Shown: positions 292-12,810 of the stretch, in pieces
How positions within the stretch are numbered: the stretch's first letter is position 1
How the letters are laid out: the number at the start of each line of letters is the position of its first letter
Assembly: GCA_037442505.1 (NCBI GenBank)
Contig: JBBIPZ010000035.1
Coordinates: 1 to 12,810, forward strand
Length of the DNA: 12,810 bases
Origin: JBBIPZ01 sp037442505 [NCBI: Deltaproteobacteria bacterium]
GTDB lineage: Bacteria > CALINM01
Direction of reading: 5' to 3'
The notes under the pieces: generated by a model
What the model was told of the DNA's origin: nothing
The model's database searches: none
Seen by the model: the letters and a program-made list of their open reading frames with translations, nothing else
Position numbers and translations under genes: made by a program

Positions 292-999
292 TTAAATCAT
301 TAAATATTTATGTTTTATTTCTTCATTCTTACTTAGCTCATCTATGCTACCTTCGTATTCTATCTTACCCTTATTTATTACATAGGCTCTATCTGCAATT
401 TGCATAGAAAACCTAACGTTTTGTTCAGAAAACAGTATTGTAAGCCCAAGCTGTTTGAGTTTTAAAAGTTTTTCAGCAAAATCTTTTACAACTAATGGTG
501 CCAGCCCCTCTACTGGTTCGTCTAATAAAATCATTTCCGGGTTTCCCATCAAAGTTCTACCAATTGTTAGCATCTGCTGTTCACCACCACTTAGGTGTCC
601 TCCTAAATGTTTGTCGAGTTTTTTTAAGTAGGGGAATATATCATAAATCATGTCAACATTCCACTTTTGTGATAAGCTGTATTTAGAATCCTTCCTGCCA
701 AGTAAAAGATTTTCTCTTACGGTTAAATCTGGAAAAATTAACCTGTTATCAGGGACATAACCTATCCCTATGTTGGCTATGTAGTAAGGTGGTTTTCCTT
801 TAATATCTTCATTGTGAAATTTAATACTGCCCGATTTAGGTGGAGTTAGCCCCATCAGGCTTCTTAAGGTGGTTGTTTTTCCAGATCCATTTCTACCAAG
901 AAGACAAACAAGCTCTCCTTTTTGGATTTTTAAAGATATGTTAAAAAGAATATGACTGGTGCCATAATAGGTGTTTATATCTTTAGCTTCTAAAATCAT
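292..999 (-). CDS. livF: HAAT/Liv-type ABC transporter ATP-binding protein LivF
   Basis: A 235-residue ATPase subunit that, paired with LivG, powers uptake through LivH/LivM on the cytoplasmic face of the inner membrane. Visible motifs are Walker A GRNGSGKT (residues 35-42), the ABC signature LSGGEQQ (136-142), Walker B MILLDEP (156-162) and the SEQN switch region (191-194), where LivF proteins have Gln instead of the usual His. Length is normal for the family. The ATG overlaps the livG stop by 4 bases (ATGA, 996-999), so translation is probably coupled. It is the last gene of the six-gene operon. The name livF gives the family, not the substrate: the dehydrogenase at the head of the operon suggests the cargo may not be a branched-chain amino acid. 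Confidence 0.93.
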   Translation of the reverse strand: MILEAKDINTYYGTSHILFNISLKIQKGELVCLLGRNGSGKTTTLRSLMGLTPPKSGSIKFHNEDIKGKPPYYIANIGIGYVPDNRLIFPDLTVRENLLLGRKDSKYSLSQKWNVDMIYDIFPYLKKLDKHLGGHLSGGEQQMLTIGRTLMGNPEMILLDEPVEGLAPLVVKDFAEKLLKLKQLGLTILFSEQNVRFSMQIADRAYVINKGKIEYEGSIDELSKNEEIKHKYLMI

Positions 1000-1745
1000 A
1001 TTTCCTCACCAAGATAGCATTTTTGTACATCTTCATTTTTTCTCACTTCTTCGGGCAAACCATCTGCTATTATTTTCCCCTGATATAATACAGAAAGTCT
1101 CATTGCATACCCAAATATCACAGATATATCATGCTCAGTAAATAGAATGGTTACCCCCACATTTTTATTAAGCCTTTTTACCAGTTCCATCGTTTCAAAT
1201 GTTTCTTCTGCTGACATACCTGCCGTTGGCTCGTCTAAAAGCAGAAGTCTTGGCTTACCTGCTAATGCTAAAGCAAGCTCTAATTTTTTTTTGTCGCCTT
1301 GTGATAAAACACCAGCGATTATCCCTTTATTTTCGATTAAGCCGGTGAGTTCAAGTAGTTCTTCTGTTTCAATTTTTGCAAGTTTGGAAGCAGAAGTAAA
1401 AATGTTTAAAGTTTTTTTTTGCTGGGCAAGCACCGCTTGTCTGACATTTTCATAAGTGGATAATCTTGGATAAATATTACTAACTTGAAAAGCTCGACTA
1501 ATGCCTATATGAGCAATCTTATGTCTTTTCCAGTTTGTAATATCAATATCATTAAATAAAACAGTTCCTTTATCGAGATGATGATAACCTGTAATTAGAT
1601 TGAATAGGGTGCTTTTACCAGCACCATTTGGACCAATTATTGCCGCAATCATCCCATCAGGTAATTCGTAATTAACATCTGTCAACACCTGATAAGTACC
1701 AAAAGATTTTCTAAGGTTTTTTATAGTTAAAATTTTTTTCTCCAT
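996..1745 (-). CDS. livG: HAAT/Liv-type ABC transporter ATP-binding protein LivG
   Basis: A 249-residue ATPase subunit and partner of LivF. Motifs are Walker A GPNGAGKS (38-45), the Q-loop Gln near residue 87, the signature LSQGDKKKLE (147-156; LivG proteins commonly deviate from LSGGQ here), Walker B LLLLDEP (167-173) and the switch His in FTEHD (about 205). The start ATG is preceded by GGGAGA about 11 bases upstream. The gap to livM is 21 bases and the downstream end overlaps livF by 4. A run of nine A on the coding strand (1412-1420) encodes part of QQKKT and is a possible slippage site, but the frame is intact here. Confidence 0.93.
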   Translation of the reverse strand: MEKKILTIKNLRKSFGTYQVLTDVNYELPDGMIAAIIGPNGAGKSTLFNLITGYHHLDKGTVLFNDIDITNWKRHKIAHIGISRAFQVSNIYPRLSTYENVRQAVLAQQKKTLNIFTSASKLAKIETEELLELTGLIENKGIIAGVLSQGDKKKLELALALAGKPRLLLLDEPTAGMSAEETFETMELVKRLNKNVGVTILFTEHDISVIFGYAMRLSVLYQGKIIADGLPEEVRKNEDVQKCYLGEEI

Positions 1746-1766
1746 GTATATTTAATCTCCCGCTTT

Positions 1767-2693
1767 TTAAACGCTTATAATAAATCTTTTAATCTTGCTA
1801 AATAAGCCAAAAAAGCCATCGGGTAAAAGCAAAACAACGGTAATAATAATAGTTCCGCTTATAAGAGGCCAATACTCTGTGTAACCAGTAACAATAGCCA
1901 TTAATAAGGTATATATAATTGAACCTGCAAGCGGTCCAAAAAAATTAAAAGGGCCACCAAGTACAGACATAAACACAGGAATGCCTGAATGTTGCCAATT
2001 GCATAAATCTGGGGATACGCTTCTTGAAAACGGTCCCCAAAGTGCACCAGCTAAGCCAGCAAACATAGCTGCTATAACAAAGTTTATGTGCATATATCGT
2101 TTCACATTAATGCCGAGAAACTCTGTTCTTTCAGCATTGTCTCTTATAGCTCTCAGTGTGTAACCAAAAGGGGATTCCCCAATTTTGTAAAGTAGAAACG
2201 ATGCAACAATAAAAACTATAAGTGTAAAATAATAGTAGTTGTAAATATTTTTGAGCATCTCAGGAGGATTTATACCTTGTAGTCCATTGTCTCCACCGGT
2301 AAAAGAATATGACTGAAAGATTATGTAATAGACTAACTGTCCAAAAGCCATTGTTAGTATGGCAAAATAAATACCTCTAAGTTTGACACAAAAAAACCCC
2401 AAAACCAACGCAAAAATACCAGCCGTTAACATCGATATGGGAAGACAATACAGCAGTGGCAAGTCAGCTTTTACCATTAGTAGCCCTGTGGTATACGCAC
2501 CAATACCATAATAAGCTGCATGTCCAAAGCTAAGCTGCCCCATATAACCAAAAATTAGATTGAAGCTTAAAGCAAAAAGGGCATGTATTAGTATTTCTGA
2601 CAGAATGTGTACCCAGAACTCTTTTACTATAAGTGGCAATATAAAAAATAAGCCTGAAAGAAAGATGAGCATATTGATTTTCCGTATATTCAT
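1767..2693 (-). CDS. livM: HAAT/Liv-type ABC transporter permease LivM
   Basis: A 308-residue inner-membrane permease of the branched-chain amino acid permease family (BPD_transp_2). The protein is almost wholly hydrophobic with multiple predicted membrane helices. Recognisable family stretches include FNLIFGYMGQLSFGHAAYYG (about residues 44-63) and the cytoplasmic coupling segment around GYTLRAIRDNAERTEFLGIN, which contacts the ATPases. The start ATG lies 3 bases after the livH stop, and its AAGGA ribosome site is inside the end of livH, so the two permeases are translationally linked. Length is typical of LivM without extra domains. Confidence 0.92.
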   Translation of the reverse strand: MNIRKINMLIFLSGLFFILPLIVKEFWVHILSEILIHALFALSFNLIFGYMGQLSFGHAAYYGIGAYTTGLLMVKADLPLLYCLPISMLTAGIFALVLGFFCVKLRGIYFAILTMAFGQLVYYIIFQSYSFTGGDNGLQGINPPEMLKNIYNYYYFTLIVFIVASFLLYKIGESPFGYTLRAIRDNAERTEFLGINVKRYMHINFVIAAMFAGLAGALWGPFSRSVSPDLCNWQHSGIPVFMSVLGGPFNFFGPLAGSIIYTLLMAIVTGYTEYWPLISGTIIITVVLLLPDGFFGLFSKIKRFIISV

Positions 2694-2696
2694 AAT

Positions 2697-3584
2697 TTAC
2701 ATCCTTGTAGGAGAGCCAAAAAGCCCCCACGGTCTAACAATTAAAACTGCTGCTGTAATTACAAAAATTAATACCATTGCACCACCAGGCCAGAATAAAA
2801 TAGCGAAGGAATAAATTTCGCCAATTATTAATGCTCCGACAAAAGTTCCAATTAAGCTTCCAAAACCGCCTATTACTACAACACAAAATGCCTGAATAAT
2901 GATTGCTATGTCCATCCCAAGCGTTACAGATCCTATTGGAGCTTGAACAGCACCAGCCAAACCAGCTATAAATATGCCAAGAGCAAACACAAATGTATAT
3001 ATCTTAGGAATCGGTATTCCAAGTGCACTTACCATCTCTCGACTATATACGGCAGCCTTTATAATGTGTCCATATCTTGTGAATCTAAGAAACCACCATA
3101 ATCCAACTGCAACTAAAAATCCTACCAAATAAACAAATATAAAATAAGAGTCAAAGGGGGCACCTAAAATAAAAATGGGCTTTCTAATTATTTCTGGTCT
3201 TTCGATAAGTTTATCGGTAACCCCCCAAAAAATTTTTATTAAATCACCCAAAATTAATGTAAGTGAGTAAGTGATCAAAAGCTGTTCGTATAACTCTCTT
3301 TTGTAAATTCTTCTAATAAGCACTATCTCAATAAACGCTCCAATTATCGCCATAGCAATCGCTGCGAGAGGTATGCTTAACCACAAAGCAATAGAAAGCG
3401 ATTGATTTAGGTAGCTCCAGAATGAGTAACAAAAATAAGCCCCAATCAGCCAAAATGTTGCGTGTGCAAAGTTTAAGATATTCATTACCCCAAATATTAA
3501 TGATAGCCCCGCAGCGACAAGGAATAACATTATTCCATAGGTAAGACCACTCAAAAATTGAGATAGTATAAAGGTAAAATTCAC
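2697..3584 (-). CDS. livH: HAAT/Liv-type ABC transporter permease LivH (GTG start)
   Basis: A 295-residue permease forming the membrane channel with LivM. The N-terminus LSGLTYGIMLFLVAAGLSLI followed by FGVMNILNFAHATFW is the hallmark of LivH, and multiple hydrophobic helices run throughout. The start codon is GTG at 3584, chosen because GGAGAG sits about 7 bases upstream and because it gives the expected family N-terminus. The preceding binding-protein gene ends 12 bases upstream, so the Shine-Dalgarno overlaps that gene's stop region. It is the third gene of the operon. Length and topology are normal. Confidence 0.92.
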   Translation of the reverse strand: MNFTFILSQFLSGLTYGIMLFLVAAGLSLIFGVMNILNFAHATFWLIGAYFCYSFWSYLNQSLSIALWLSIPLAAIAMAIIGAFIEIVLIRRIYKRELYEQLLITYSLTLILGDLIKIFWGVTDKLIERPEIIRKPIFILGAPFDSYFIFVYLVGFLVAVGLWWFLRFTRYGHIIKAAVYSREMVSALGIPIPKIYTFVFALGIFIAGLAGAVQAPIGSVTLGMDIAIIIQAFCVVVIGGFGSLIGTFVGALIIGEIYSFAILFWPGGAMVLIFVITAAVLIVRPWGLFGSPTRM

Positions 3585-3596
3585 GGTGAATCTCTC

Positions 3597-4823
3597 CTAT
3601 TTTGCTGTCTTTCTTGCTTCTAATATCTCTTTTTCTGGTCTTTCGCTTTCTTCACCTTTAACTTCTATGATATTCTTATAAATTGGAAATGGATATTTAG
3701 GATCATCAGAAACAACACCAACATATGAAGAACATCTAAGTTGGTTATCAATCTCTCTAAATTTTAACTTTCCTCTTGTTAAAGAAACCGTCATGCCCTT
3801 CATAGCATCCTTTACTTTTTCTGAATCAATAGTTTTCGCCTTCTCGATGCCTTGTTTTAATGCATAAACAGCATCATAGCCCATAACTGCCCAGTCTGTT
3901 GGATATTGGTTATACTGAGCAAAATAGCGTTTAACAAAATTTGACATCATTTTGTTGTTAAGGTGAGCAAAGAATGGAGCTCTTGTTAAACCAATGATTC
4001 CTCTTGGGAGTGTTTTCGCTTCTAAAATAAGCTCAGAAACACTAATTAACGATCCTGGATAAGGTATTTTGTCAAAAAAACCATATGCCTTTGCTTGCTC
4101 CATCCAGGAAACATTATCCTTTGAAGCTAAACTACCATATACAAAATCGGGCTGCATAGCCATAATGCTTGTTATGTAAGAGGTAAACTGTGTTTCTCCA
4201 AGTCTTGGCCAAAACTCTTTTTTAAGAGTGAGTTCTGGGGCAAGTTCCTTTAAAAATTTTACGGCTTCTTTTTGCGTAGAACGGCCCCATTCGTAATCAG
4301 AAGCTATGGTTACATATGTTTTCCATTTTTTTGCTTTAGCCATTTTTGCGATAGCAATAGCAGAAGCCTTTGCCTGCATATAGCTGTTAGGAACTACTTG
4401 AAAGGTGTATGGACTATAGTTAATTTTTGTAATGTTTTCGGAGTTGCTTATGGCTGCAATATGAATAACCTTATACTCATTAGCTATCGGTTTAACTGCC
4501 ATTGCAACTGCACTGGAATAATCATTAATCAAAGCCTTTACACCATCTCTCAAAATTAGGTCTTTTACAACTCTTACGCCCACATCTGGTTTTGTTTGGG
4601 TATCGGCAATATGAAGTTTGATCTTGTATTTGCCTAAAAAACCACCCTTTGCGTTAATCTCTTCAACAGCAAGTTTAATTCCGTTTACCTGCTCAGCGCT
4701 ATATAACGCTCCTGTTCCCGTAAGACTTAATGCAACACCAAGCGGATACTCCTGTGCACCAAAAGAAACTTTAGAAACTAAAAGAAACATTAACGACAAG
4801 AATAAACAGACAACCTTTTTCAT
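3597..4823 (-). CDS. Periplasmic solute-binding protein of a HAAT/Liv ABC importer (Peripla_BP_6)
   Basis: A 408-residue exported receptor that delivers ligand to LivHM. A Sec signal peptide is clear: MKKVVC, a hydrophobic core, then a cleavage region near SFGA-QE (about residues 22-24). The mature part begins with the type I binding-protein pattern PLGVALSLTGTGALYSAEQ and VNGIKLAVEEINAKGG. There is no lipobox, so it should be soluble in the periplasm. The ATG has a very strong AGGAGGGG ribosome site, consistent with the high expression expected of a binding protein. It follows the dehydrogenase gene by 19 bases. Ligand identity cannot be read from the sequence; co-transcription with a 3-hydroxybutyrate-dehydrogenase-like enzyme makes a small carboxylate or hydroxyacid as plausible as Leu/Ile/Val. 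Confidence 0.9.
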   Translation of the reverse strand: MKKVVCLFLSLMFLLVSKVSFGAQEYPLGVALSLTGTGALYSAEQVNGIKLAVEEINAKGGFLGKYKIKLHIADTQTKPDVGVRVVKDLILRDGVKALINDYSSAVAMAVKPIANEYKVIHIAAISNSENITKINYSPYTFQVVPNSYMQAKASAIAIAKMAKAKKWKTYVTIASDYEWGRSTQKEAVKFLKELAPELTLKKEFWPRLGETQFTSYITSIMAMQPDFVYGSLASKDNVSWMEQAKAYGFFDKIPYPGSLISVSELILEAKTLPRGIIGLTRAPFFAHLNNKMMSNFVKRYFAQYNQYPTDWAVMGYDAVYALKQGIEKAKTIDSEKVKDAMKGMTVSLTRGKLKFREIDNQLRCSSYVGVVSDDPKYPFPIYKNIIEVKGEESERPEKEILEARKTAK

Positions 4824-4842
4824 AACCCCTCCTTTTTAAGTT

Positions 4843-5694
4843 TTAATATGTTAAAACCATACCACCATCAAACAATAAATCGCCCCCAACTAAATATTTG
4901 GAAAATCTTGAGAAGCCAAAGATAAAAAGGTTAGCCACTTCTATAGGAGTCATCATTTCTTTAACCCTCGACCTGCCAAGCATCACTTCTCTAACAACTT
5001 CTTCATCTGTGATTTTCCTCTGTTCTGATTGAGCCTTAATCTGGTTAAGCGCTAAAAACGTCCTTACAAAACCGGTACTTACCGTAAAGGACCTTATTTT
5101 TCCTTCACCTTCTGCAGATATTGATTGACTTAAAGCCCTTAAACCGAACTTGGTGATATTGTAAACAGGCTTATTCATTGTGCAAATGTGTCCATGAACA
5201 GAACTCATATTGCCTATGACACCTTTGCCATCGAGATTTTTTTTGAAATGTGGAATAACAAGCTTTGATAAAAGAAAAGGAGCCCTTAACATAAGAGACA
5301 TCATAAGATCATATTTTTCCATGGGGAAATCTGATACAGAGTCAATATGCTGAATGCCAGCAATATTTGCTAAATATCTAATGTTTCCAAGCTTTGCCGC
5401 TTCATTTACTGCTGCTATTACCTGTTCATCTTTGGTTAAATCAGTTTTGATAAATATCATCTGTCCATTGAATTTTCTGGCTAATTTTTGTGTCTCCTTG
5501 CCAGCCTTCTCATCAATATCAAGTCCAACTGTCATAAGATTATTTACAGAAGCCGCAATTGCAGTTGCTTTACCTATGCCACTTCCACAACCTGTAACAA
5601 TACATACGTTATTTATATTAAAATCTTTATCATCTAACCTAAGTACCTCCTCAATTTTAATGACAGGTTCTTTAATAAGTTTTTTATCTCTCAT
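4843..5694 (-). CDS. Short-chain dehydrogenase/reductase, 3-hydroxybutyrate dehydrogenase-like
   Basis: A 283-residue NAD(P)-dependent oxidoreductase. Motifs are the Rossmann TGCGSGIG (34-41), an acidic residue after beta-2 (GLDID, favouring NAD), NIAG (110-113; usually NNAG), catalytic Ser 165 and the pair Tyr 178/Lys 182 (YNITK). The C-terminal pattern GFVRT ... ITDEEVVREVMLG closely follows 3-hydroxybutyrate dehydrogenases, which interconvert 3-hydroxybutyrate and acetoacetate. The usual Pro of PGFVRT is Thr (STGFVRT), and a 28-residue N-terminal extension precedes the fold. The start at 5694 is chosen because AAGGAG lies 6 bases upstream; the longer frame to 5748 would begin on top of the sigma-54 promoter. 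First gene of the transporter operon. SDR membership is certain; the substrate is inferred. Confidence 0.85.
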   Translation of the reverse strand: MRDKKLIKEPVIKIEEVLRLDDKDFNINNVCIVTGCGSGIGKATAIAASVNNLMTVGLDIDEKAGKETQKLARKFNGQMIFIKTDLTKDEQVIAAVNEAAKLGNIRYLANIAGIQHIDSVSDFPMEKYDLMMSLMLRAPFLLSKLVIPHFKKNLDGKGVIGNMSSVHGHICTMNKPVYNITKFGLRALSQSISAEGEGKIRSFTVSTGFVRTFLALNQIKAQSEQRKITDEEVVREVMLGRSRVKEMMTPIEVANLFIFGFSRFSKYLVGGDLLFDGGMVLTY

Positions 5695-5731
5695 ATTGTG
5701 CTCCTTATGTAAAACAATGTTATAGAGTAAC

Positions 5732-5748
5732 AGCAACCTTGATGCCAA
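5732..5748 (-). promoter_or_regulatory. Sigma-54 (-24/-12) promoter of the dehydrogenase-transporter operon
   Basis: Read on the minus strand the site is TTGGCATCAAGGTTGCT, matching the sigma-54 consensus TGGCAC-N5-TTGCW at all but one position. The invariant GG (5746-5745) and GC (5734-5733) are separated by exactly 10 bases. Transcription would begin near 5721, leaving a leader of about 27 bases that contains the AAGGAG ribosome site (5706-5701) and the ATG at 5694. It lies beside a divergently transcribed sigma-54 activator gene, which strongly supports function. Confidence 0.85.
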
Positions 5749-5821
5749 TTAAAGACAGTTTTAAGATAATTATTTTTTTTTCCAAGAAATAAAACAGTTT
5801 TTAGTTTTTTGTATTGCATTA

Positions 5822-5909
5822 TTAGTATCAAAACAGGTATCATTATTGTAGAAAAATTGATACATAAATGTGTTTGATAACGACGCAAAATGTATCTTTT
5901 TTGATACAA
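5822..5909. promoter_or_regulatory. Cluster of TTGATACA-like repeats, candidate enhancer (UAS) for the sigma-54 activator
   Basis: Six related half-sites occur in 88 bases: GTATC at 5825-5829, 5837-5841 and 5892-5896; GATAC at 5859-5863 and 5903-5907; and a degenerate GATAA at 5876-5880. Written in one orientation their consensus is about TTTGATACA. Two form a perfect palindrome TGTATC-TTTTTT-GATACA (5891-5908), ending 5 bases before the regulator ATG. Relative to the inferred operon start near 5721 the cluster lies at roughly -104 to -187, the usual enhancer range. A T9 tract (5773-5781) between the cluster and the promoter could favour bending. The proximal palindrome also suits autorepression of the regulator. 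Binding is inferred from repetition and position. Confidence 0.65.
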
Positions 5910-5913
5910 AAAA

Positions 5914-7302
5914 ATGAAAAGAACAGATTATTTAAAACAGCTTAAAGAAAGGTTAGAATTTTTAGAACTTGTTATTGACAATATTTATAATGGAGTTATT
6001 ATTACTGATTCTACAGGGAAAATTTTATACTTTAACAAACCGTATGGTCAATTTCTTGGTATCAATGCAAAAGACCAAATTGGAAAAGATGTTAGGGATG
6101 TGATCGAAAACACAAGAATGCATATAGTTGCTAAAACAGGAATCCCTGAACTTAATAAAGCTCATAAAATCAAGGGACAGGATATGGTTGTGCAGAGGAT
6201 ACCCATTAAGAAAGATGGTAGAGTAATAGGAGTCTTCGGTCAGGTTATGTTTAAAAATGTTACAGATGTGACAACACTTGCGAACGAACTTTCGCTTCTT
6301 GAATCAAAGATTAAGTTATATGAGGAAGAACTGGTTTCGTTGAGGTCCACAAGGTATACATTAGATAGTATTGCAGGAGTGAGCAAATCAATAGTAGAAC
6401 TAAAAAACGAGGCTATTAAGGCTGCAGGAACAAATTTTCCAATTCTTATTACAGGAGAGTCTGGTACAGGTAAAGAGATATTTGCTCAAGCTATTCATAA
6501 CTTAAGTGATAGACGTGCCTATCCCTTTGTCAGGATTAACTGTTCTGCTATACCAAAAGAACTTCTTGAGATGGAGCTGTTTGGATATGAAAAAGGAGCT
6601 TTTACTGGTGCAAGAGAAGAGGGGAAATATGGTAAGTTTGAACTTGCTCATAGAGGAACTATTTTTCTCGATGAAATTGGAGATATGCCACTGGAAATGC
6701 AGCCCAAGTTGTTGAGAGTGTTGGAGGAAAAGGAGATAGAAAAGATTGGAGGCAAAGCCCCCAAAAAGGTAGATTTCAGGTTAATAGCTGCAAGTAATCA
6801 AAATATGGAAGAATTAGTAGCATCCGGAAAATTTAGAAAAGATCTATTCTATAGGATAAACGTCATAAGGCTTCATATTCCACCTTTGAGAGAAAGAAGG
6901 GAAGATATTATTCCAATTGCCAAGGCATTTCTGAATTCTGTAGAGGAAGAAGGATTAAAGAAAAGATTTTCAATTAACCCACGTGCGGAAGATATACTAA
7001 AAGAGTATCAATGGAGTGGAAATGTTAGAGAGCTTGTCAATGTGCTTAGCAGGATTGTCTGTTTCATTGATAGAGAGGAAATTTTGCCTCTCGACATTCC
7101 AGCATATATAAGAAATGCAAATAATGAAAATTCTACAAATAACACTAATCTTACCTTGGGAAGTCTTACTGAAAATATCGAAAAGGAAGAGATAGAGAGG
7201 GCTTTAATTAATACTAATAACAACAAAACAAAAGCAGCCAAAATACTTGGTATTCATAGAACACATTTGTATAAAAAAATAAAAAAATACGGAATTAAAT
7301 AG
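5914..7302 (+). CDS. Sigma-54-dependent transcriptional activator (PAS - AAA+ - Fis HTH)
   Basis: A 462-residue enhancer-binding protein. The N-terminal PAS sensor (about 13-118) is followed by a short coiled-coil linker (about 120-145). The AAA+ domain shows Walker A GESGTGKE (181-188), the sigma-54-contacting GAFTGA loop (228-233) and Walker B GTIFLDE (248-254), with the arginine-finger region near FRKDLFYR. A Fis-type helix-turn-helix occupies about 423-460 (NKTKAAKILGIHRTHLYKK). There is no receiver domain, so activity is probably controlled by a ligand or partner of the PAS domain rather than phosphorylation. 5914 is the most upstream start, because TGA at 5902-5904 closes the frame. No Shine-Dalgarno is visible, so translation may be weak or from a very short leader. 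Its probable target is the divergent operon. Confidence 0.92.
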   Translation: MKRTDYLKQLKERLEFLELVIDNIYNGVIITDSTGKILYFNKPYGQFLGINAKDQIGKDVRDVIENTRMHIVAKTGIPELNKAHKIKGQDMVVQRIPIKKDGRVIGVFGQVMFKNVTDVTTLANELSLLESKIKLYEEELVSLRSTRYTLDSIAGVSKSIVELKNEAIKAAGTNFPILITGESGTGKEIFAQAIHNLSDRRAYPFVRINCSAIPKELLEMELFGYEKGAFTGAREEGKYGKFELAHRGTIFLDEIGDMPLEMQPKLLRVLEEKEIEKIGGKAPKKVDFRLIAASNQNMEELVASGKFRKDLFYRINVIRLHIPPLRERREDIIPIAKAFLNSVEEEGLKKRFSINPRAEDILKEYQWSGNVRELVNVLSRIVCFIDREEILPLDIPAYIRNANNENSTNNTNLTLGSLTENIEKEEIERALINTNNNKTKAAKILGIHRTHLYKKIKKYGIK

Positions 7303-7403
7303 CAAAAAACTGCCGATAGTCTATAATCTTTAGCTCTTTAATATTTCTCAAAAATCTGTTTTTTCAACTTAAAATTTTTATCAAAATGGCATAAAATGTT
7401 TCT

Positions 7404-7901
7404 ATGAAAAGAGACTTGCCTATGATAATCGCTTTTGTTGGCTATTCTGGCTCAGGAAAGACTACATTGCTTACAAAGATCATCTCTATTCTTTCGGAAA
7501 AAGATTATAAAGTAGGAACAATCAAGCACACCCATCATAATTTTGAAACAGATAAACCAGGCAAAGATTCTTATCTTCATTTTCATTCTGGTGCATACGC
7601 ATCTATGATTATCTCTGATAAAAAAATCGCTTTTGTTAAAAGAAGTAACGAGCAAAACATATCTGAAATAGTAGCTAAATATTATTCTGATTGTGATGTA
7701 GTCTTTATAGAAGGGTTTAAGGATTATGATCTTCCAAAAATAGTTGTACATAGAAAAGAGTTAGGAAAACAGCCTTTATATGATAAGCTTAGCAATGTTA
7801 TCGCGGTTGCTACGGATGAGGAGATGAATTTTTCTATCCCAGTTTTTAATATAAACGAGCCTGCAAAGATATCTGCCTTTATAGAAGAGAAATTTTTGTA
7901 A
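7404..7901 (+). CDS. mobB: Molybdopterin-guanine dinucleotide biosynthesis adaptor protein MobB
   Basis: A 165-residue P-loop GTP-binding protein of the MobB family, which assists MobA in attaching GMP to molybdopterin for bis-MGD enzymes such as formate dehydrogenases and DMSO-reductase-family reductases. Visible features are Walker A GYSGSGKTT, the motif KHTHHNFETDKPGKDS followed by SGA, EGFKDYDLPKIVVHR, and VIAVATDE near the C-terminus. Length is typical. 7404 lacks a ribosome site. An in-frame ATG at 7422 gives MIIAFVGYSGSGKTT, the more usual family N-terminus, with a weak AGAGA upstream, so the true start may be 18 bases later. The 101-base gap after the regulator holds a TATAAT (7322-7327) without a recognisable -35. 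Confidence 0.88.
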   Translation: MKRDLPMIIAFVGYSGSGKTTLLTKIISILSEKDYKVGTIKHTHHNFETDKPGKDSYLHFHSGAYASMIISDKKIAFVKRSNEQNISEIVAKYYSDCDVVFIEGFKDYDLPKIVVHRKELGKQPLYDKLSNVIAVATDEEMNFSIPVFNINEPAKISAFIEEKFL

Positions 7902-7948
7902 TTAACGTTTGCTTTTTGTTGATAGCATAGGGAAAATAAGGTAACATA

Positions 7949-8323
7949 ATGTTAAAGAGGTGCTTGATGAAGATTGTATTTAAAATTTCTTTACTGTTGT
8001 TGTGTCTGATGGTTTTAATGGGACAGGTTGGCATAAAAAGCTTTGAACACGATTTTGGCAAAGTGAAGCCAGATGAATATGTATACCATACCTTTGAGAT
8101 TGAAAACTCAACAGAAGGCAATTTAGTGGTAGAAAATGTTCAGGCAGGCTGAGGCGTAAAATACAGCTTTCCCTCGGGTAGGGAAGTGAAAACAGGCGAA
8201 ATTTTACAGATCAAAATTGGTTATAAGCCTTGTGCGAGAGAGGGTTTTGAAAAAATAATTCTAGTAAGGATAAATAAACAACCAAAATTTATTAATTTTT
8301 TCATTAAAGGTGTTGCAGAATAG
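7949..8323 (+). CDS. DUF1573-family exported protein, predicted selenoprotein (in-frame TGA at 8150-8152 read as Sec)
   Basis: The frame runs 67 codons, meets TGA, then continues 56 sense codons to TAG (8321-8323), giving 124 residues. Residues 1-25 form a signal peptide or membrane anchor. SFEHDFGKVKPDEYVYHTFE and IENSTEGNLVVENVQAG match the DUF1573 pattern FGxIxxGexVxHxFxxxNxGxxxLxI ending at ASCGC. The TGA falls on the first Cys of that CGC motif (Sec68-Gly-Val; the second Cys is Val). The part after the TGA (PSGREVKTGEILQIKIGY to FIKGVAE) completes the beta-sandwich. A SECIS-like hairpin follows the TGA. Treating TGA as a stop would leave a 177-base hole in a tightly packed operon. Start 7949 has AAGGT 6 bases upstream; in-frame ATG 7967 with AGAGGTG at 7956-7962 is at least as good (Sec would be residue 62). 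One other mature Cys, residue 95. Function is unknown: perhaps periplasmic thiol or selenol redox. Confidence 0.72.
8150..8186 (+). promoter_or_regulatory. Candidate bacterial SECIS element (UGA codon plus downstream hairpin)
   Basis: After the UGA (8150-8152) and 14 linking bases, C8167 plus TTTCCCT (8168-8174) pairs with AGGGAAG (8180-8186) around a five-base loop CGGGT (8175-8179). Pairing C8167 with G8186 gives seven base pairs, with one U of the UUU run bulged. A bulged U plus a G-containing apical loop just downstream of UGA is the known arrangement of the E. coli fdhF SECIS bound by SelB. There the upper stem begins 11 bases after UGA, so this one is three bases (one codon) further away. 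The hairpin is seen directly; SelB recognition is inferred. Confidence 0.65.
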
Positions 8324-8329
8324 CTAAAG

Positions 8330-9367
8330 ATGGGTTTTATTTTGGATGGCACTTTCAAAATATTTTTAGTACCTTTAGCTGTAGCTATTGGTACTTTTTT
8401 TGTGTTGGTAATACTGCGTGGTATCGCATTTAAGCTGCTTCACAAATGGGCTGACAAAACGCATACAAAACTTGATGATATTGTTATCGTTTCCTTAAAG
8501 CTCCCTTCTTTATTTTGGTGTTTAGCTATTGGACTTTATCTTGGTGTTGCTGTTTCATCTTTCCCTGAAAAATATCTTTTTTATATCACTAAAACTATTT
8601 ATGTTGTAATCGTCTTTTCTATAACCCTTGTTGCTGCTAATCTTTCTGCCAAAATATTTAGAAATTACATTCAATCTTCTAATTTGCCTGTTCCAACAAC
8701 GGGACTTTTTTATGGCTTGTTAAAGGGAATAATACTGATAATAGGTTTTTTAATTATTCTCTCAATACTTGGCGTTTCCATTACGCCTCTTATAACAGCA
8801 TTAGGTGTTGGAGGTTTGGCGGTAGCACTTGCTTTACAGGACACGCTTGCAAATCTATTTGCGGGGCTGCATATTCTGGTAGAACGTTCAATAAGAGTGG
8901 GTGATTTTATAAGGCTTGAAACTGGTCAGGAAGGGTATGTTGAAGACATAACATGGCGAACCACCAGAATCAGAATGTTGCCCAACAACATCGTCGTGAT
9001 ACCCAATAGCAAACTATCACAGAGTATTGTTACAAATTATTATCTGCCAGAAAAAAGAATGGCGCTTTTAATTCCAGTAAGCGTTAGCTATGCATCTGAT
9101 CCGGAAAAAATAGAAAAACTGCTCTTGGATATTGCGGAATCGGCTATAGGTAAGATAGACGGTTTGCTATCAGACCCAAAACCAGCGGTGAGATTTATAC
9201 CTGGGTTTGGTGATAGTTCGCTTGATTTTACGTTAATCTGTCATGTTAGAGAGTTTACTGATCAATATCCTGTTCAGCACGAAATAAGAAAACTAATATT
9301 TAAGCGTTTTAGAGAAGAAGGGGTTGAGATTCCGTTTCCTCAACGCGTTGTCCATTTAAAACAATAA
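8330..9367 (+). CDS. mscS: MscS-family small-conductance mechanosensitive channel
   Basis: A 345-residue inner-membrane channel that opens under membrane tension and releases solutes on hypo-osmotic shock. Several N-terminal hydrophobic helices (about residues 8-30, 55-76, 84-106 and 122-148) precede the pore helix region ITALGVGGLAVALALQDTLA (about 155-175, Gly/Ala rich). Then comes the MscS beta domain: ERSIRVGDFIRLE, GYVEDITWRTTRIR, and NNIVVIPNSKLSQSIVTNYY. A mixed alpha/beta C-terminal domain ends in EIPFPQRVVHL, as in the family. It starts 6 bases after the selenoprotein-candidate stop and shows no strong ribosome site, so translational coupling to that gene is likely. It is longer than E. 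coli MscS because of additional N-terminal membrane helices. Confidence 0.93.
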   Translation: MGFILDGTFKIFLVPLAVAIGTFFVLVILRGIAFKLLHKWADKTHTKLDDIVIVSLKLPSLFWCLAIGLYLGVAVSSFPEKYLFYITKTIYVVIVFSITLVAANLSAKIFRNYIQSSNLPVPTTGLFYGLLKGIILIIGFLIILSILGVSITPLITALGVGGLAVALALQDTLANLFAGLHILVERSIRVGDFIRLETGQEGYVEDITWRTTRIRMLPNNIVVIPNSKLSQSIVTNYYLPEKRMALLIPVSVSYASDPEKIEKLLLDIAESAIGKIDGLLSDPKPAVRFIPGFGDSSLDFTLICHVREFTDQYPVQHEIRKLIFKRFREEGVEIPFPQRVVHLKQ

Positions 9368-9368
9368 A

Positions 9369-10115
9369 ATGTCAAAAAAAATCCGTGCAGACGAAGCAAT
9401 TTTTCAGATGGGCTTGGCAGAAACAAGAAGTCGCGCAAAAACATTGATAATGATGGGAAAGGTGTATTGCGATGGAAAAAAGATTGACAAAGCAGGCGAT
9501 CTTGTTTCTATTGAACAACATTTTGAGATTAAGGAAGCTCTGCCATACGTGAGCAGAGGAGGGCTTAAATTAGAAGCTGCTATTAAAGAGTTTGGGATTT
9601 CATTGAATAACAAGATTTGTGTTGATATTGGAGCGTCTACAGGCGGATTTACTGACTGCATGCTTAAATTTGGTGCAAGAAAAGTTTATGCGATTGATGT
9701 GGGTTATAGAGTATTAGATGAAAGACTGGTTAAGGATGAAAGAGTTGTTAATATTGAACGGACAAACATTCGATACTTAGACAATAAGCTAATCAAAGAT
9801 GAAATCGATTTTATAAGCATTGATGTTTCTTTTATTTCTTTGACGCTTGTCTTGCCAAAGGCTTTTGAAATCCTGAAACAAAATGGAGAAATTGTTGCTT
9901 TAATAAAACCACAATTTGAGTTAACGCCTAAAGATGTGGGTAAAGGCGGAATTGTTAGAGACGAGACCAAGCATAACAAGGCTATTGAAAAGATACTTGA
10001 TTTTGTAATGACATTTAATTTAAAAGTAGGTGGGATTGTTTCGTCTCCTATTCTTGGACGAAAAGGCAATAAAGAGTTTTTGATTTTCCTGATTAAGAGG
10101 GGGCACGTTGATTAA
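9369..10115 (+). CDS. tlyA: TlyA family rRNA 2'-O-ribose methyltransferase / putative hemolysin
   Basis: A 248-residue protein with an N-terminal S4 RNA-binding domain (about 3-60, KIRADEAIFQMGLAETRSRA) and a C-terminal FtsJ/RrmJ-like SAM methyltransferase domain. The SAM site is DIGASTGGFTD (86-96). Likely K-D-K-E catalytic residues are Lys67 (YVSRGGLKLE), Asp152 (IDVSFISL), Lys180 (LIKPQFE) and Glu236 (GNKEFLIF). Family members 2'-O-methylate cytidines of 16S and/or 23S rRNA, which affects capreomycin susceptibility; hemolysin is an older label. It starts one base after the mscS stop and overlaps the next gene by 8 bases. Full length, with nothing unusual. Confidence 0.94.
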   Translation: MSKKIRADEAIFQMGLAETRSRAKTLIMMGKVYCDGKKIDKAGDLVSIEQHFEIKEALPYVSRGGLKLEAAIKEFGISLNNKICVDIGASTGGFTDCMLKFGARKVYAIDVGYRVLDERLVKDERVVNIERTNIRYLDNKLIKDEIDFISIDVSFISLTLVLPKAFEILKQNGEIVALIKPQFELTPKDVGKGGIVRDETKHNKAIEKILDFVMTFNLKVGGIVSSPILGRKGNKEFLIFLIKRGHVD

Positions 10116-11043
10116 CATTTTATTTCCTTTCTTCATAATTATTGGCTGTGGAGTTATATTCAGATATCTAAAGCCAGGCGGATTAGATGCTGACAAAATA
10201 AGGCTTGCAATCAACACAACGGTTTTTAACCTGTTTTTACCAGCACTATGTGTAAAGGTTTTTACTACAGCAAGTTTTGGCATAGAAACACTTTCTATCC
10301 CTTTAACAGCTTGGGGTACTTTATTTATAATGATTTTAGTAAACTACTTCATATTTTTTAAATTTTTAGGCAAAAAAGGGATAGAAAATAAAAGTATAGG
10401 AGCACTTATAATTGCGGCAACACTGGGCAATGTTACTTATCTGGGCTTGCCTTTTTTAACAGGATTGTACGGGAGCAATGCAGCACAATATGCACTTTAT
10501 TATGACCTATTGGCAACAACGCCTTTTCTCTGGCTGGTTGGTGTTAGATTTGGGGGACACTTTGGAACGGGGAAAAAGTTGAGTATCAAAGAATCTTTGG
10601 TCAAGCTATTGTTCTTGCCGCCACTTTGGGGAATTGTGATAGGTGCTTTGATAAATTTATCTGGCATAACTTTGCCACATTTTATCTATAAGTCAATAGA
10701 AATGATGGCTGGGGTCGTTATTCCACTAATGACTTTTAGTGTTGGGCTTTCCCTATCCGTGTCTCATTTAGACAAGATAAATTGGCTTATAACTTTGATA
10801 GTAATGAAACTTTTAATATCGCCTTTTGTATCTTTATTTATAGGCAAACTTTTAGGACTAAGTGGAGTCCCACTATTTGCTTGTTTTCTCGAAGGAGGAA
10901 TGCCAACTATGGTGCTTTCATTGTTAATCGCTGCAGAATTTGGGCTTGATGTAGCTCTTGCAGCATTATGTATTGTTGTTACAACTGTTTGTAGTTTCTT
11001 AACACTGCCTATTCTTGTGTATTTGACCAAATTTTTTCTATAA
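10108..11043 (+). CDS. AEC-family (auxin efflux carrier-like) transporter, TTG start
   Basis: A 311-residue polytopic inner-membrane protein with about ten hydrophobic helices. It matches the AEC/malonate-type transporter family by length, by the N-terminal IIIGCGVIFRYLKPGG, and by conserved stretches NVTYLGLPFL (first half) and EGGMPTMVLSLLIAAEFGLD (second half), where Gly, Pro and Asn/Met-rich helix breaks recur. Characterised bacterial relatives carry malonate, malate or other carboxylates, but the substrate here is not deducible. The start is TTG at 10108, supported by AGAGGGGG with a 4-base spacer. It overlaps the end of tlyA by 8 bases and closes the mobB-side operon. The transcript is followed by an 84-base gap without a clear terminator. 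Confidence 0.87.
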   Translation: MINILFPFFIIIGCGVIFRYLKPGGLDADKIRLAINTTVFNLFLPALCVKVFTTASFGIETLSIPLTAWGTLFIMILVNYFIFFKFLGKKGIENKSIGALIIAATLGNVTYLGLPFLTGLYGSNAAQYALYYDLLATTPFLWLVGVRFGGHFGTGKKLSIKESLVKLLFLPPLWGIVIGALINLSGITLPHFIYKSIEMMAGVVIPLMTFSVGLSLSVSHLDKINWLITLIVMKLLISPFVSLFIGKLLGLSGVPLFACFLEGGMPTMVLSLLIAAEFGLDVALAALCIVVTTVCSFLTLPILVYLTKFFL

Positions 11044-11072
11044 AAAACGAAAAAATAATCGAAATTACCTAT

Positions 11073-11101
11073 TTTACTTAATAAAACGTATAAAATATAA
11101 T
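11073..11101 (+). promoter_or_regulatory. Sigma-70-type promoter of the rhodanese gene
   Basis: A -35 TTTACT (11073-11078, four of six consensus positions), a 17-base spacer and a perfect -10 TATAAT (11096-11101). Predicted start is near 11108. The short leader of about 20 bases contains AGGAGGG (11116-11122) with a 5-base spacer to the ATG at 11128. The upstream AT-rich tract (11041-11060) could act as an UP element. Confidence 0.75.
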
Positions 11102-11127
11102 TAGCCAAAAAAAACAGGAGGGCTTTT

Positions 11128-11637
11128 ATGAAGCTTAAATTATTTACAAAACTAACTATTTTAGCCTTAATTTCGATAGTTTGTTTATCTGGATCTGCAT
11201 CGGCATTTGGCACAAAGGAAATTGACACTGAAAAGATTGCTGTTAACTTTTATCGAGAAGCTATAAAGGGAGGCTATAAAGTTTTAACAGCAAAAGAGTT
11301 GAAAGATTGGATTGATCAAAAGAAGGATATGATAATTCTTGACACAATGCCTTTTGAAGCAAGTTACAAAAAACGTCATATTCCAGGTGCTGTTAATGTA
11401 GAATTTCCTATTTCAGAATTAACGACACTGGATGATAATAAAAAAAATGAACTGATAAAAGCTATTGGTACGGATAAAGAAAAAACAATAGTTTTTTATT
11501 GTGGCTTTACCACCTGCACAAGAAGTCATAATGGTGCAATGTGGGCAGTCAAGTTAGGTTATAAAAATGTATATCGTCAGCCTGGAGGAATAAATGCCTG
11601 GCTTGATGCTGATTACCCCGTAGAGAAAGTAAAATAG
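11128..11637 (+). CDS. Exported rhodanese-like sulfurtransferase with two-cysteine active loop
   Basis: A 169-residue single-domain rhodanese. A signal peptide (MKLKLFTKLTILALISIVCL to SASA-FG, about residues 1-27) sends it to the periplasm. The domain shows ILDTMPFEASYKKRHIPGAVN and the active loop FYCGFTTCTRSHNGA, then GYKNVYRQPGGINAWLDADYPV. The loop carries two Cys four residues apart (CGFTTC), instead of the single-Cys CxxGxRS loop of GlpE/PspE-type enzymes. This resembles periplasmic CGGxxCxxS variants, so catalysis could involve a disulfide as well as a persulfide. It has its own strong promoter and ribosome site, suggesting steady expression. A role in periplasmic thiosulfate, polysulfide or sulfur handling is inferred. 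It converges on the next gene with only 5 bases between stop codons and no terminator hairpin seen. Confidence 0.88.
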   Translation: MKLKLFTKLTILALISIVCLSGSASAFGTKEIDTEKIAVNFYREAIKGGYKVLTAKELKDWIDQKKDMIILDTMPFEASYKKRHIPGAVNVEFPISELTTLDDNKKNELIKAIGTDKEKTIVFYCGFTTCTRSHNGAMWAVKLGYKNVYRQPGGINAWLDADYPVEKVK

Positions 11638-11642
11638 CGAAA

Positions 11643-12521
11643 CTATAAAGCCCTAAAAATCTCTGGTTTAAGGTAGTCGCTGTTTTTCTCATTAATCACT
11701 TTTTCAAGCAGGGCTATGGCTGAAGGTTTATCTTTTGGCATGCGAATTTTGAGTGGTAAATAGTTGGAGGCATGGTTTGCCATAAAAAGCCCTGCTTTCA
11801 GATCTGTGTTTTCGAGCATCAATTTAAGCTCTGATAACAATTCAAAAGGGGACGGCAACACAAAGTCCCCACTTTTTTGCTCTTCATATAAGGGGGTGTT
11901 TTCAACGACCATAACGGTCAATGCGCCGATATAATTAGGCTGCATAACTGATAGTAGTGTGCCAGTATCAATTGCATGAGCATTAGATAACTTTTTCCCA
12001 CCGATACCTAACAAAACAGTCACACTTAACTTAATGCCAGCATCTATGATTTTTAAACCTGCTTCTAACATCTGGTCACGAGATACACCTTTACAAATCT
12101 TTTTAAGAACAAGATCGTTGCCAGACTCTATCCCTAAATAAACTATGCCTAAGCCCTTTTCTTTTAAAAGAAGGAGATCTTCTTTTGATTTTCTTAAAAT
12201 ACTTTTTGCGTTAGCATATAGGCCAATACGTTGAAGATAAGGAAATGCTGCATGTAGTTTTTCAAATAAGCCTAACAGATAATCTGTTTTTAATACAAGA
12301 ACGTCGCCATCACATAAAAATACGCGTCTTACAAAATTGCCATACTGTTTTGATGCGAACGAAATGTCTTTTTCAATAATAGATTGGTCTTTTAATTTAA
12401 ATTTGACGTCTTTGTATGTAGGGCAGAAAGTACATTTATTATGCGAACAACCAACAGTGATCTGTAAAATAATACTATTTGCCTCGCTGGGAGGCCTAAT
12501 AATTATTCCTTGATAATCCAT
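11643..12521 (-). CDS. Radical SAM protein of the Elp3-like clade (CX4CX2C cluster motif)
   Basis: A 292-residue iron-sulfur enzyme. The [4Fe-4S] ligands are Cys25, Cys30 and Cys33 in GCSHNKCTFC. The spacing is CX4CX2C rather than the classical CX3CX2C, but GCSHNKCTFC followed by YKDVKF is the usual form of a small, mostly uncharacterised radical SAM subfamily. Other family marks are VFLCDGDVLVL (about 67-77, often LADGD in relatives), the SAM-contacting GIESGND (about 130-136) and LGIGGKKLSNAHAIDT. No TRAM, SPASM or B12 domain is visible. The reaction is unknown. ATG 12521 has no Shine-Dalgarno; a possible own promoter lies immediately upstream inside the tRNA terminator. Confidence 0.88.
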   Translation of the reverse strand: MDYQGIIIRPPSEANSIILQITVGCSHNKCTFCPTYKDVKFKLKDQSIIEKDISFASKQYGNFVRRVFLCDGDVLVLKTDYLLGLFEKLHAAFPYLQRIGLYANAKSILRKSKEDLLLLKEKGLGIVYLGIESGNDLVLKKICKGVSRDQMLEAGLKIIDAGIKLSVTVLLGIGGKKLSNAHAIDTGTLLSVMQPNYIGALTVMVVENTPLYEEQKSGDFVLPSPFELLSELKLMLENTDLKAGLFMANHASNYLPLKIRMPKDKPSAIALLEKVINEKNSDYLKPEIFRAL

Positions 12522-12544
12522 AACATTAGAAAAAAAGTAAAAGA

Positions 12545-12573
12545 ATTATAAAAAAACCTCAAAAGAGGGTTAA
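12545..12573 (-). promoter_or_regulatory. Possible promoter of the radical SAM gene, embedded in the tRNA terminator
   Basis: On the minus strand, TTAACC (12573-12568, four of six -35 positions), a 17-base spacer and a perfect TATAAT (12550-12545). The predicted start near 12538 leaves only about 16 untranslated bases and no ribosome site. The element shares its bases with the terminator hairpin and T tract, so the TATAAT could also be a by-product of the T-rich tail. Confidence 0.4.
12550..12571 (-). terminator. Intrinsic terminator of the tRNA-Lys/tRNA-Glu transcript
   Basis: On the minus strand, AACCCTC, a TTTT loop and GAGGTT form a six-pair stem with one bulged C, followed at once by a run of T (complement of the A run at 12550-12556). 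It begins 8 bases after the CCA end of tRNA-Glu. The stem is modest but the position and T tract are typical. Confidence 0.7.
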
Positions 12574-12579
12574 CTTTTA

Positions 12580-12655
12580 TGGCGTCCCCACGGGGATTCG
12601 AACCCCGGTTACAGCCGTGAAAGGGCTGGGTCCTTGGCCACTAGACGATGGGGAC
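12580..12655 (-). tRNA. tRNA-Glu (anticodon TTC), CCA encoded
   Basis: A 76-base cloverleaf on the minus strand. The acceptor stem GTCCCCA pairs with TGGGGAC, with discriminator G and an encoded CCA (12582-12580). The anticodon stem CAGCC/GGCTG encloses the loop CTTTCAC with anticodon TTC. The T arm is CCGGG-GTTCGAA-TCCCCG-like and complete. It lies 18 bases downstream of tRNA-Lys and is presumably cleaved from the same transcript. Confidence 0.96.
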
Positions 12656-12673
12656 AATGACCAAATTGACATA

Positions 12674-12746
12674 TGAGCCGCGATGGATTCGAACCATCGA
12701 CCACCTCCTTAAAAGGGAGATGCTCTACCTACTGAGCTAGCGGCCC
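12674..12746 (-). tRNA. tRNA-Lys (anticodon TTT), CCA not encoded
   Basis: A 73-base cloverleaf on the minus strand. The acceptor stem GGGCCGC pairs with GCGGCTC (one G-U pair), with discriminator A. The D arm is CTAGCTCAGTAGGTAGAGC. The anticodon stem TCTCC/GGAGG encloses CTTTTAA with anticodon TTT, and the T arm CGATG-GTTCGAA-CATCG is intact. The bases after the discriminator are TAT, so CCA must be added by the nucleotidyltransferase, unlike the adjacent tRNA-Glu. Confidence 0.96.
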
Positions 12747-12765
12747 CTCGCTTATTAGACTAATA

Positions 12766-12795
12766 CTTATACAACAATTTAAACACAAATGTCAA
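12766..12795 (-). promoter_or_regulatory. Sigma-70 promoter of the tRNA operon
   Basis: On the minus strand, a perfect -35 TTGACA (12795-12790), an 18-base spacer and a -10 TATAAG (12771-12766, five of six). The predicted start is near 12759, about 13 bases before tRNA-Lys. This is the strongest -35 in the window, as expected for a stable-RNA gene. Confidence 0.8.
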
Positions 12796-12810
12796 GCATT
12801 TTTCTCCCTA

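What the first reader, a model, noticed from the sequence alone, without database searches (positions are those of the whole stretch)
7949..8323. Unrecognised selenoprotein: DUF1573-family exported protein with Sec in place of the CGC-motif cysteine
Seen directly: one in-frame TGA at 8150-8152, followed by 56 sense codons to TAG with no frame change. The residues before the TGA match the N-terminal half of DUF1573 up to the conserved SCGC position, and those after it match the C-terminal half. The TGA sits on the first Cys of the motif. The next gene begins 6 bases after the TAG, so reading through also restores the tight operon spacing. Established: Sec usually replaces a conserved redox Cys and needs a local SECIS. 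Inference: this is a selenoprotein, implying a redox role for at least some DUF1573 proteins. I do not recall DUF1573 among classical selenoprotein families but cannot check this.
Basis: partly seen in the sequence, partly recalled or inferred. Interest (0 to 1): 0.88.

Follow-up and report, generated by a model that had tools for sequence, protein, structure and literature searches.

The report
Probable DUF1573 selenoprotein, unusual motif
This gene probably makes a small exported protein with selenocysteine at its active site; selenoproteins of this family have been listed since 2008, but this one lacks the usual partner cysteine beside the selenium.

Summary
One in-frame TGA (8150-8152) splits a DUF1573 gene (7949-8323), and reading through it gives a 124-residue Ig/PapD-like domain. 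Both halves match PF07610, and downstream codon use looks coding. The TGA lies on the first-Cys column, which is Cys (95) or TGA (22) in 117 distinct aligned relatives; a profile built without the window agrees.

"Unrecognised" does not hold. DUF1573/OS_HP2 is a listed selenoprotein family (2008 GOS paper; 2022 and 2026 reviews; an NCBIfam model).

The motif here is U-G-V, whereas the second Cys is present in 117 of 117 relatives and in the published UGC/UxC motif. A Cys (residue 95) sits in another loop, where 0 of 117 relatives have one.

Best reading: a genuine selenoprotein, a variant of a known kind (about 0.75). The main rival is a nonsense mutation in a gene whose motif had already decayed. 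I could not settle this: no genome is held for the window, so SelB and tRNA-Sec could not be sought, and no close relative was found. A hairpin fits the published bacterial SECIS rules but is weak evidence. That Cys95 replaces the lost partner Cys is a testable guess.

The parts
7949..8323 (+). DUF1573 (PapD/HYDIN-like Ig domain) gene, read through TGA as Sec; 124 residues from ATG 7949, or 118 if it starts at ATG 7967
7954..7962 (+). AAAGAGGTG, ribosome-binding-like stretch for a start at ATG 7967
   Evidence: read from the sequence; inference
7967..8032 (+). hydrophobic N-terminus, signal-peptide-like (MKIVFKISLLLLCLMVLMGQVG)
   Evidence: read from the translation; predicted helix 2-23, low confidence; no signal-peptide program was run
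8150..8152 (+). in-frame TGA, codon 68, on the first-Cys column of the DUF1573 motif; proposed Sec
8156..8158 (+). GTA (Val70), where 117 of 117 distinct aligned relatives have Cys
8166..8187 (+). SECIS-like hairpin: 8-bp stem with a bulged U, 5-nt loop CGGGU at 8175-8179, 22 nt after the TGA
   Evidence: centroid; -10.5 kcal/mol, tied 2nd-4th of 376 TGA triplets; weak against shuffles (z -0.46)
8231..8233 (+). TGT (Cys95) in the loop between predicted strands 85-92 and 100-108; possible partner of Sec68
   Evidence: the pairing is inference
8330..9367 (+). MscS-type mechanosensitive channel, next gene, 6 bases after the TAG
7404..7901 (+). MobB (molybdopterin-guanine dinucleotide biosynthesis), gene upstream

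Best explanation
The gene encodes a small, probably exported, single-domain DUF1573 protein in which the UGA at codon 68 is decoded as selenocysteine (SelB, tRNA-Sec and a SECIS hairpin just downstream). It is a divergent relative of the already known DUF1573/OS_HP2-type selenoproteins. It keeps the Sec at the first motif position but lacks the second motif cysteine (U-G-V, not U-G-C). Sec68 would be the nucleophile of a thiol/selenol redox site in the loop between predicted strands 59-66 and 70-73. Cys95, the only other Cys after residue 23, lies in a loop that by Ig topology is at the same end of the domain and could be the resolving partner. Shown: the frame, the homology of both halves, the exact column, the predicted fold, the absence of the second Cys. 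Inferred: Sec insertion, export, redox role, Cys95 partnership.
For: The TGA falls on the one column that is Cys or TGA in 117 of 117 distinct relatives (95 C, 22 TGA), also with a profile made without the window. TGA-containing DUF1573 genes are common in the sampled relatives of G001 (28 places among the rows listed, in 16 of 98 genomes), and 15 of those 16 genomes have a tRNA-Sec match of 62 bits or more. The family is listed as a selenoprotein family. Both halves match PF07610 in register, and the C-terminal half keeps in-frame coding bias. The downstream 56 residues supply the last predicted strands of the domain, and the model matches PapD/HYDIN-like structures over residues 25-124. A hairpin meets the bSECIS rules printed in PMC13188914 (loop 5, stem 8 bp, G at loop position 2 followed by G, spacing 22, energy -10.5): tied 2nd-4th of 376 TGA triplets, 18 of 376 reaching -7.5.
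Against: The second Cys, present in 117 of 117 relatives, is Val here, as could happen in a decaying gene. Sec machinery could not be sought in the own genome, and no tRNA-Sec was found in the window. No close relative was found to show the TGA conserved. The SECIS evidence is weak: z -0.46 and -0.75 against shuffles; ranks varied with the scoring rule (5, 24, 3 and 2 of 376, the last two tied); and the same rule barely separates the relatives' TGA genes from other TGAs (12 of 21 against 165 of 374). NF041425 scores 32.7, under its cut-off of 100. tRNA-Sec is not specific to the TGA-bearing genomes: 17 of the 20 others tested have it.
Confidence: 0.75

Rival explanations
1. Nonsense mutation: a former DUF1573 gene, its motif already relaxed (second Cys lost), has acquired a premature TGA and makes at most a 67-residue fragment.
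For: Second Cys absent, unlike 117 of 117 relatives; no relative shows conservation of this TGA; SECIS evidence weak.
Against: A random nonsense change would have to hit the one column of about 120 where this family is known to use Sec, and be TGA rather than TAA/TAG. The 56 downstream codons have no further stop, keep coding bias and homology, and run to a stop 6 bases before the next gene.
Confidence: 0.18
2. Sequencing or assembly error: the true codon is a sense codon.
For: A single base is enough; read data are not available.
Against: The error would have to fall on the known Sec column; the other window genes give full-length-looking family matches where scanned.
Confidence: 0.05
3. TGA is reassigned to a sense codon (for example Gly or Trp) throughout this organism.
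For: None beyond the open frame. The one other gene that ends in TGA (LivG) meets a TAG one codon later, so it is weak proof that TGA is a stop.
Against: The other 13 genes were listed by a tool that breaks frames at TGA, yet 12 of them run to TAA or TAG and none looks truncated; with TGA as a common sense codon several should be broken up. The TGA sits on a known Sec column.
Confidence: 0.02

Closest known systems
DUF1573 / OS_HP2 selenoproteins (PF07610, NCBIfam NF041425; PMC2398784, PMC9312934, PMC13188914, passages only)
   Same: DUF1573 domain, Sec at the first Cys of the CGC motif
   Different: Published motif UGC/UxC; here UGV, with a Cys in another loop. NF041425 score 32.7, under its cut-off of 100.
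DUF1573 proteins of a Planctomycetota MAG and its relatives found here (L001, L002, L054-L073)
   Same: Same Sec column and similar context (NVKPGUGC against NVQAGUGV)
   Different: The search output gives open frames of several hundred residues around the matches, against one 124-residue domain here; second Cys always present; only 22-23% identity to the two L001 domains in alignment A1
HYDIN/ASH/MSP/PapD-like Ig domains (for example 2e6j, 2qsv)
   Same: Similar fold over residues 25-124
   Different: Fold similarity only; no shared function shown

Membership tests
DUF1573 (PF07610) | Pfam score above gathering cut-off 26.1 | tested here: met
   55.5 bits, residues 30-122, with Cys written for the TGA
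UGC/UxC-type DUF1573 selenoprotein as listed in the literature | Sec followed by Cys two positions on | tested here: not met
   First position TGA, second position Val; 117 of 117 relatives have Cys at the second
OS_HP2 selenoprotein subfamily (NF041425) | NCBIfam score above cut-off 100 | tested here: not met
   32.7 bits. The cut-off is strict: 71 of 98 relatives of G001 match, only 3 of 98 over it.
Bacterial selenoprotein | in-frame TGA on a conserved Cys column with conserved flanks | tested here: met
Bacterial selenoprotein | SECIS hairpin 16-37 nt downstream | tested here: inconclusive
   Fits the printed rules, tied 2nd-4th of 376, but poor z-scores and a poorly separating rule
Bacterial selenoprotein | selA, selB, selC, selD in the genome | not testable with these tools
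   No whole genome held; no tRNA-Sec in the window
Bacterial selenoprotein | selenium incorporation shown by label or mass spectrometry | not testable with these tools
   needs an experiment

The most novel reading that the evidence does not exclude
A DUF1573 selenoprotein whose resolving cysteine has moved: Sec68 in one loop pairs with Cys95 in another loop at the same end of an Ig/PapD-like domain, replacing the CxC pair by a cross-loop selenylsulfide. This would show that the motif is a true redox pair rather than, for instance, a metal site.
Probability: 0.25. Interest if true: 0.5.

Novelty: new variant of a known kind. Interest (0 to 1): 0.35.

Why it matters
Pfam still calls DUF1573 a protein of unknown function. 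A member that keeps the Sec but lacks the neighbouring Cys would argue that the first position is the catalytic one, and gives a simple protein (one domain, two such residues after the N-terminus) for testing whether the domain is redox active. It is also a gene that standard annotation would probably cut at codon 67. As a selenoprotein family it is not new.

Tried and rejected
Close relatives: a genome-contig scan with P0001 gave one relative, a Planctomycetota MAG; viral-contig scans with P0001, with alignment A1 and with the MscS protein gave none; plasmid tblastn with P0001 gave none; the PDB sequence search gave two matches at E 1.3, taken as chance; PHROGs gave none.

Lineage of the window: tblastn of the radical SAM and LivK proteins against plasmids was not informative. 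blastn of 7400-12810 against plasmids gave 155 records, none covering most of the query; in the 20 rows listed the matches are short, in the TlyA or MscS genes or near the tRNA end. P0001 against 294 genomes of the phylum of G001 gave 46 genomes with weak matches (best 38.4 bits), none of the 46 matches listed with an internal stop. I suspected a Desulfurella/Hippea-like bacterium from memory and could not test it (literature search, listing only).

Altered genetic code: disfavoured, not excluded. Rfam match near the TGA: none at E 10. tRNA-Sec as a discriminator: not useful.

First regex extraction of TGA domains was faulty because loci were not reoriented; replaced. The SECIS control used the 21 TGA places that one search had in the right orientation, of 28 listed. 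One search did not enforce the closing pair; replaced. A third dot-bracket line was off register and is ignored.

Full report
WHAT IS THERE. The window gene 7949-8323 has one in-frame TGA at codon 68 (8150-8152) and then 56 sense codons to TAG. Read through, it is a DUF1573 domain: PF07610 at 55.5 bits over residues 30-122. Each half also matches by itself and in register, each below the cut-off of 26.1: profile positions 4-40 before the TGA (24.8 bits) and 52-97 after it (20.0 bits). Codon use in the downstream half scores 0.244 per codon in frame, like the first 168 bases of MscS (0.209) and MobB (0.212), both of which were in the training set, and is below zero in the other five frames. Of the other 13 genes 12 end in TAA or TAG and LivG ends in TGA. 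Their lack of internal TGA is partly by construction, since the ORF tool stops at TGA; the point is that none looks truncated.

THE FOLD. AlphaFold2 on the window protein with two L001 domains gives mean pLDDT 74.6, pTM 0.59 and an all-beta domain after an N-terminal helix. Foldseek and VIA-align match it to PapD/HYDIN/MSP-like domains over residues 25-124, for example 2e6j (E 2.5e-07) and 2qsv, a Porphyromonas gingivalis protein of unknown function. The predicted strands 70-73, 78-80, 85-92, 100-108 and 113-123 all lie after the TGA, so a product ending at codon 67 would lack much of the domain. The hydrophobic N-terminus suggests export (inference; no signal-peptide program was run).

THE COLUMN. 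I entered 132 loci (L002-L073 and L076-L135), taken from the hits and fetched there or, plus the window. These come from the genome of a Planctomycetota MAG, its relatives and its phylum; the tool tells no kinship. Ten loci cut off at contig ends were too short and were dropped; the other 122 each gave one row, so 123 rows with the window, of which 118 were distinct, the window included. A few distinct rows are the same place fetched twice with different ends (for example L031/L050, L036/L090, L044/L096). The profile was built from 14 of these domains and the window. In the 117 others the first motif position is Cys in 95 and TGA in 22; the second is Cys in 117; of the TGA rows 21 read UGC and one USC. 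The window's TGA falls exactly on the first position, and still does so with a profile of 13 Cys-type domains without the window and with X at the TGA (33.0 bits). Its second position is Val. It also has Cys95, where 0 of 117 have a Cys within five columns. So after the first 23 residues this protein has exactly two such residues, Sec68 and Cys95.

WHAT IS KNOWN. The claim of an unrecognised selenoprotein family fails. PMC2398784 (2008) lists OS_HP2, pfam07610, motif UxC in its table of selenoproteins (passage). PMC9312934 (2022) and PMC13188914 (2026) list 'DUF1573 domain-containing protein', PF07610, motif UGC, in their selenoprotein tables (passages). The original description is cited there by number; I believe it to be the 2007 Olavius symbiont paper, which is not held. 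NCBIfam has NF041425 'OS_HP2 family (seleno)protein'. Library searches were made for OS_HP2 or OS_HP and for DUF1573 with selenoprotein, selenocysteine or cysteine. I saw no UGV form in the passages read, which is not proof that none is in print.

FAMILY IN OTHER GENOMES. With NF041425, 71 of 98 relatives of the L001 genome have a match, 3 of 98 over the cut-off. The listed rows show 28 places with one internal TGA, in 16 genomes (the list is truncated). For tRNA-Sec I gave 36 of these 98 genomes: 15 of the 16 TGA genomes have a match of 62 bits or more, and so do 17 of the 20 others, so tRNA-Sec does not discriminate there. That search also rang in all 14 control genomes, in 5 above the cut-off, so only high scores count.

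SECIS. A hairpin at 8166-8187, with an 8-bp stem and a bulged U, carries the loop CGGGU 22 nt after the TGA (centroid). It meets the bSECIS constraints printed in PMC13188914 (section read), though the loop ends C and U do not pair as in most examples. Strictly scored, it ties for 2nd-4th of 376 TGA triplets of the window, and 18 of 376 reach -7.5 kcal/mol. Other scoring variants gave rank 5, 24 and 3, tied. Against shuffles it is unremarkable (z -0.46 and -0.75). On 21 TGA genes of the relatives the same rule passes 12, against 165 of 374 other TGAs, so it has little power. I treat it as permissive, not as proof.

WEIGHING. For Sec: exact column, known Sec family, TGA not TAA/TAG, intact and coding-like downstream half, tight spacing to the next gene, permissive hairpin. 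Against: absent second Cys, no own genome, no close relative. I put Sec at about 0.75, nonsense mutation 0.18, sequencing error 0.05, reassigned code 0.02. Sec families with UxxS, UxxT or UxxV motifs are listed in the same sources, so a lone Sec is not unusual in principle.

MECHANISM. SelB-dependent Sec insertion at UGA; export; a selenol on the loop after strand 59-66 acting as redox nucleophile. In Ig topology (recalled) that loop and the loop holding Cys95 (between strands 85-92 and 100-108) are at the same end; no coordinates were available to measure the distance. Cys95 as relocated partner is a guess at about 0.25 overall. Membership: DUF1573 by profile, yes; NF041425 subfamily, no (under the cut-off); UGC-type DUF1573 selenoprotein, no (second Cys absent). 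It would work like one if Sec is confirmed.

Noticed in passing
L001 about 6013-6294 and 7582-7878 (G001:C141); also G012:C163, G005:C31, G008:C94, G014:C87, G004:C27: In several relatives of the Planctomycetota MAG a Cys-type and a TGA-type DUF1573 copy lie about 1.2-1.6 kb apart on the same strand, a Cys/Sec paralogue pair next to each other.
   Followed up: partly
L001 7582-7878: One TGA-type copy reads U-S-C instead of U-G-C.
   Followed up: no
window 8330-11043: MscS channel, TlyA-type methyltransferase and AEC-type transporter genes follow the DUF1573 gene with gaps of 6 and 1 bases and an 8-base overlap, probably one transcription unit; no strong ribosome-binding site was seen by eye before MscS, so it may be translationally coupled to the DUF1573 gene.
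   Followed up: no
window 292-7302: Branched-chain amino-acid-type ABC transporter genes on the minus strand (labels LivF/G/M/H/K recalled; only the binding protein was scanned), with a short-chain dehydrogenase gene beside them and a sigma54 activator with PAS domain on the other strand.
   Followed up: no
window 12580-12746 (-): Adjacent tRNA-Lys and tRNA-Glu genes.
   Followed up: no
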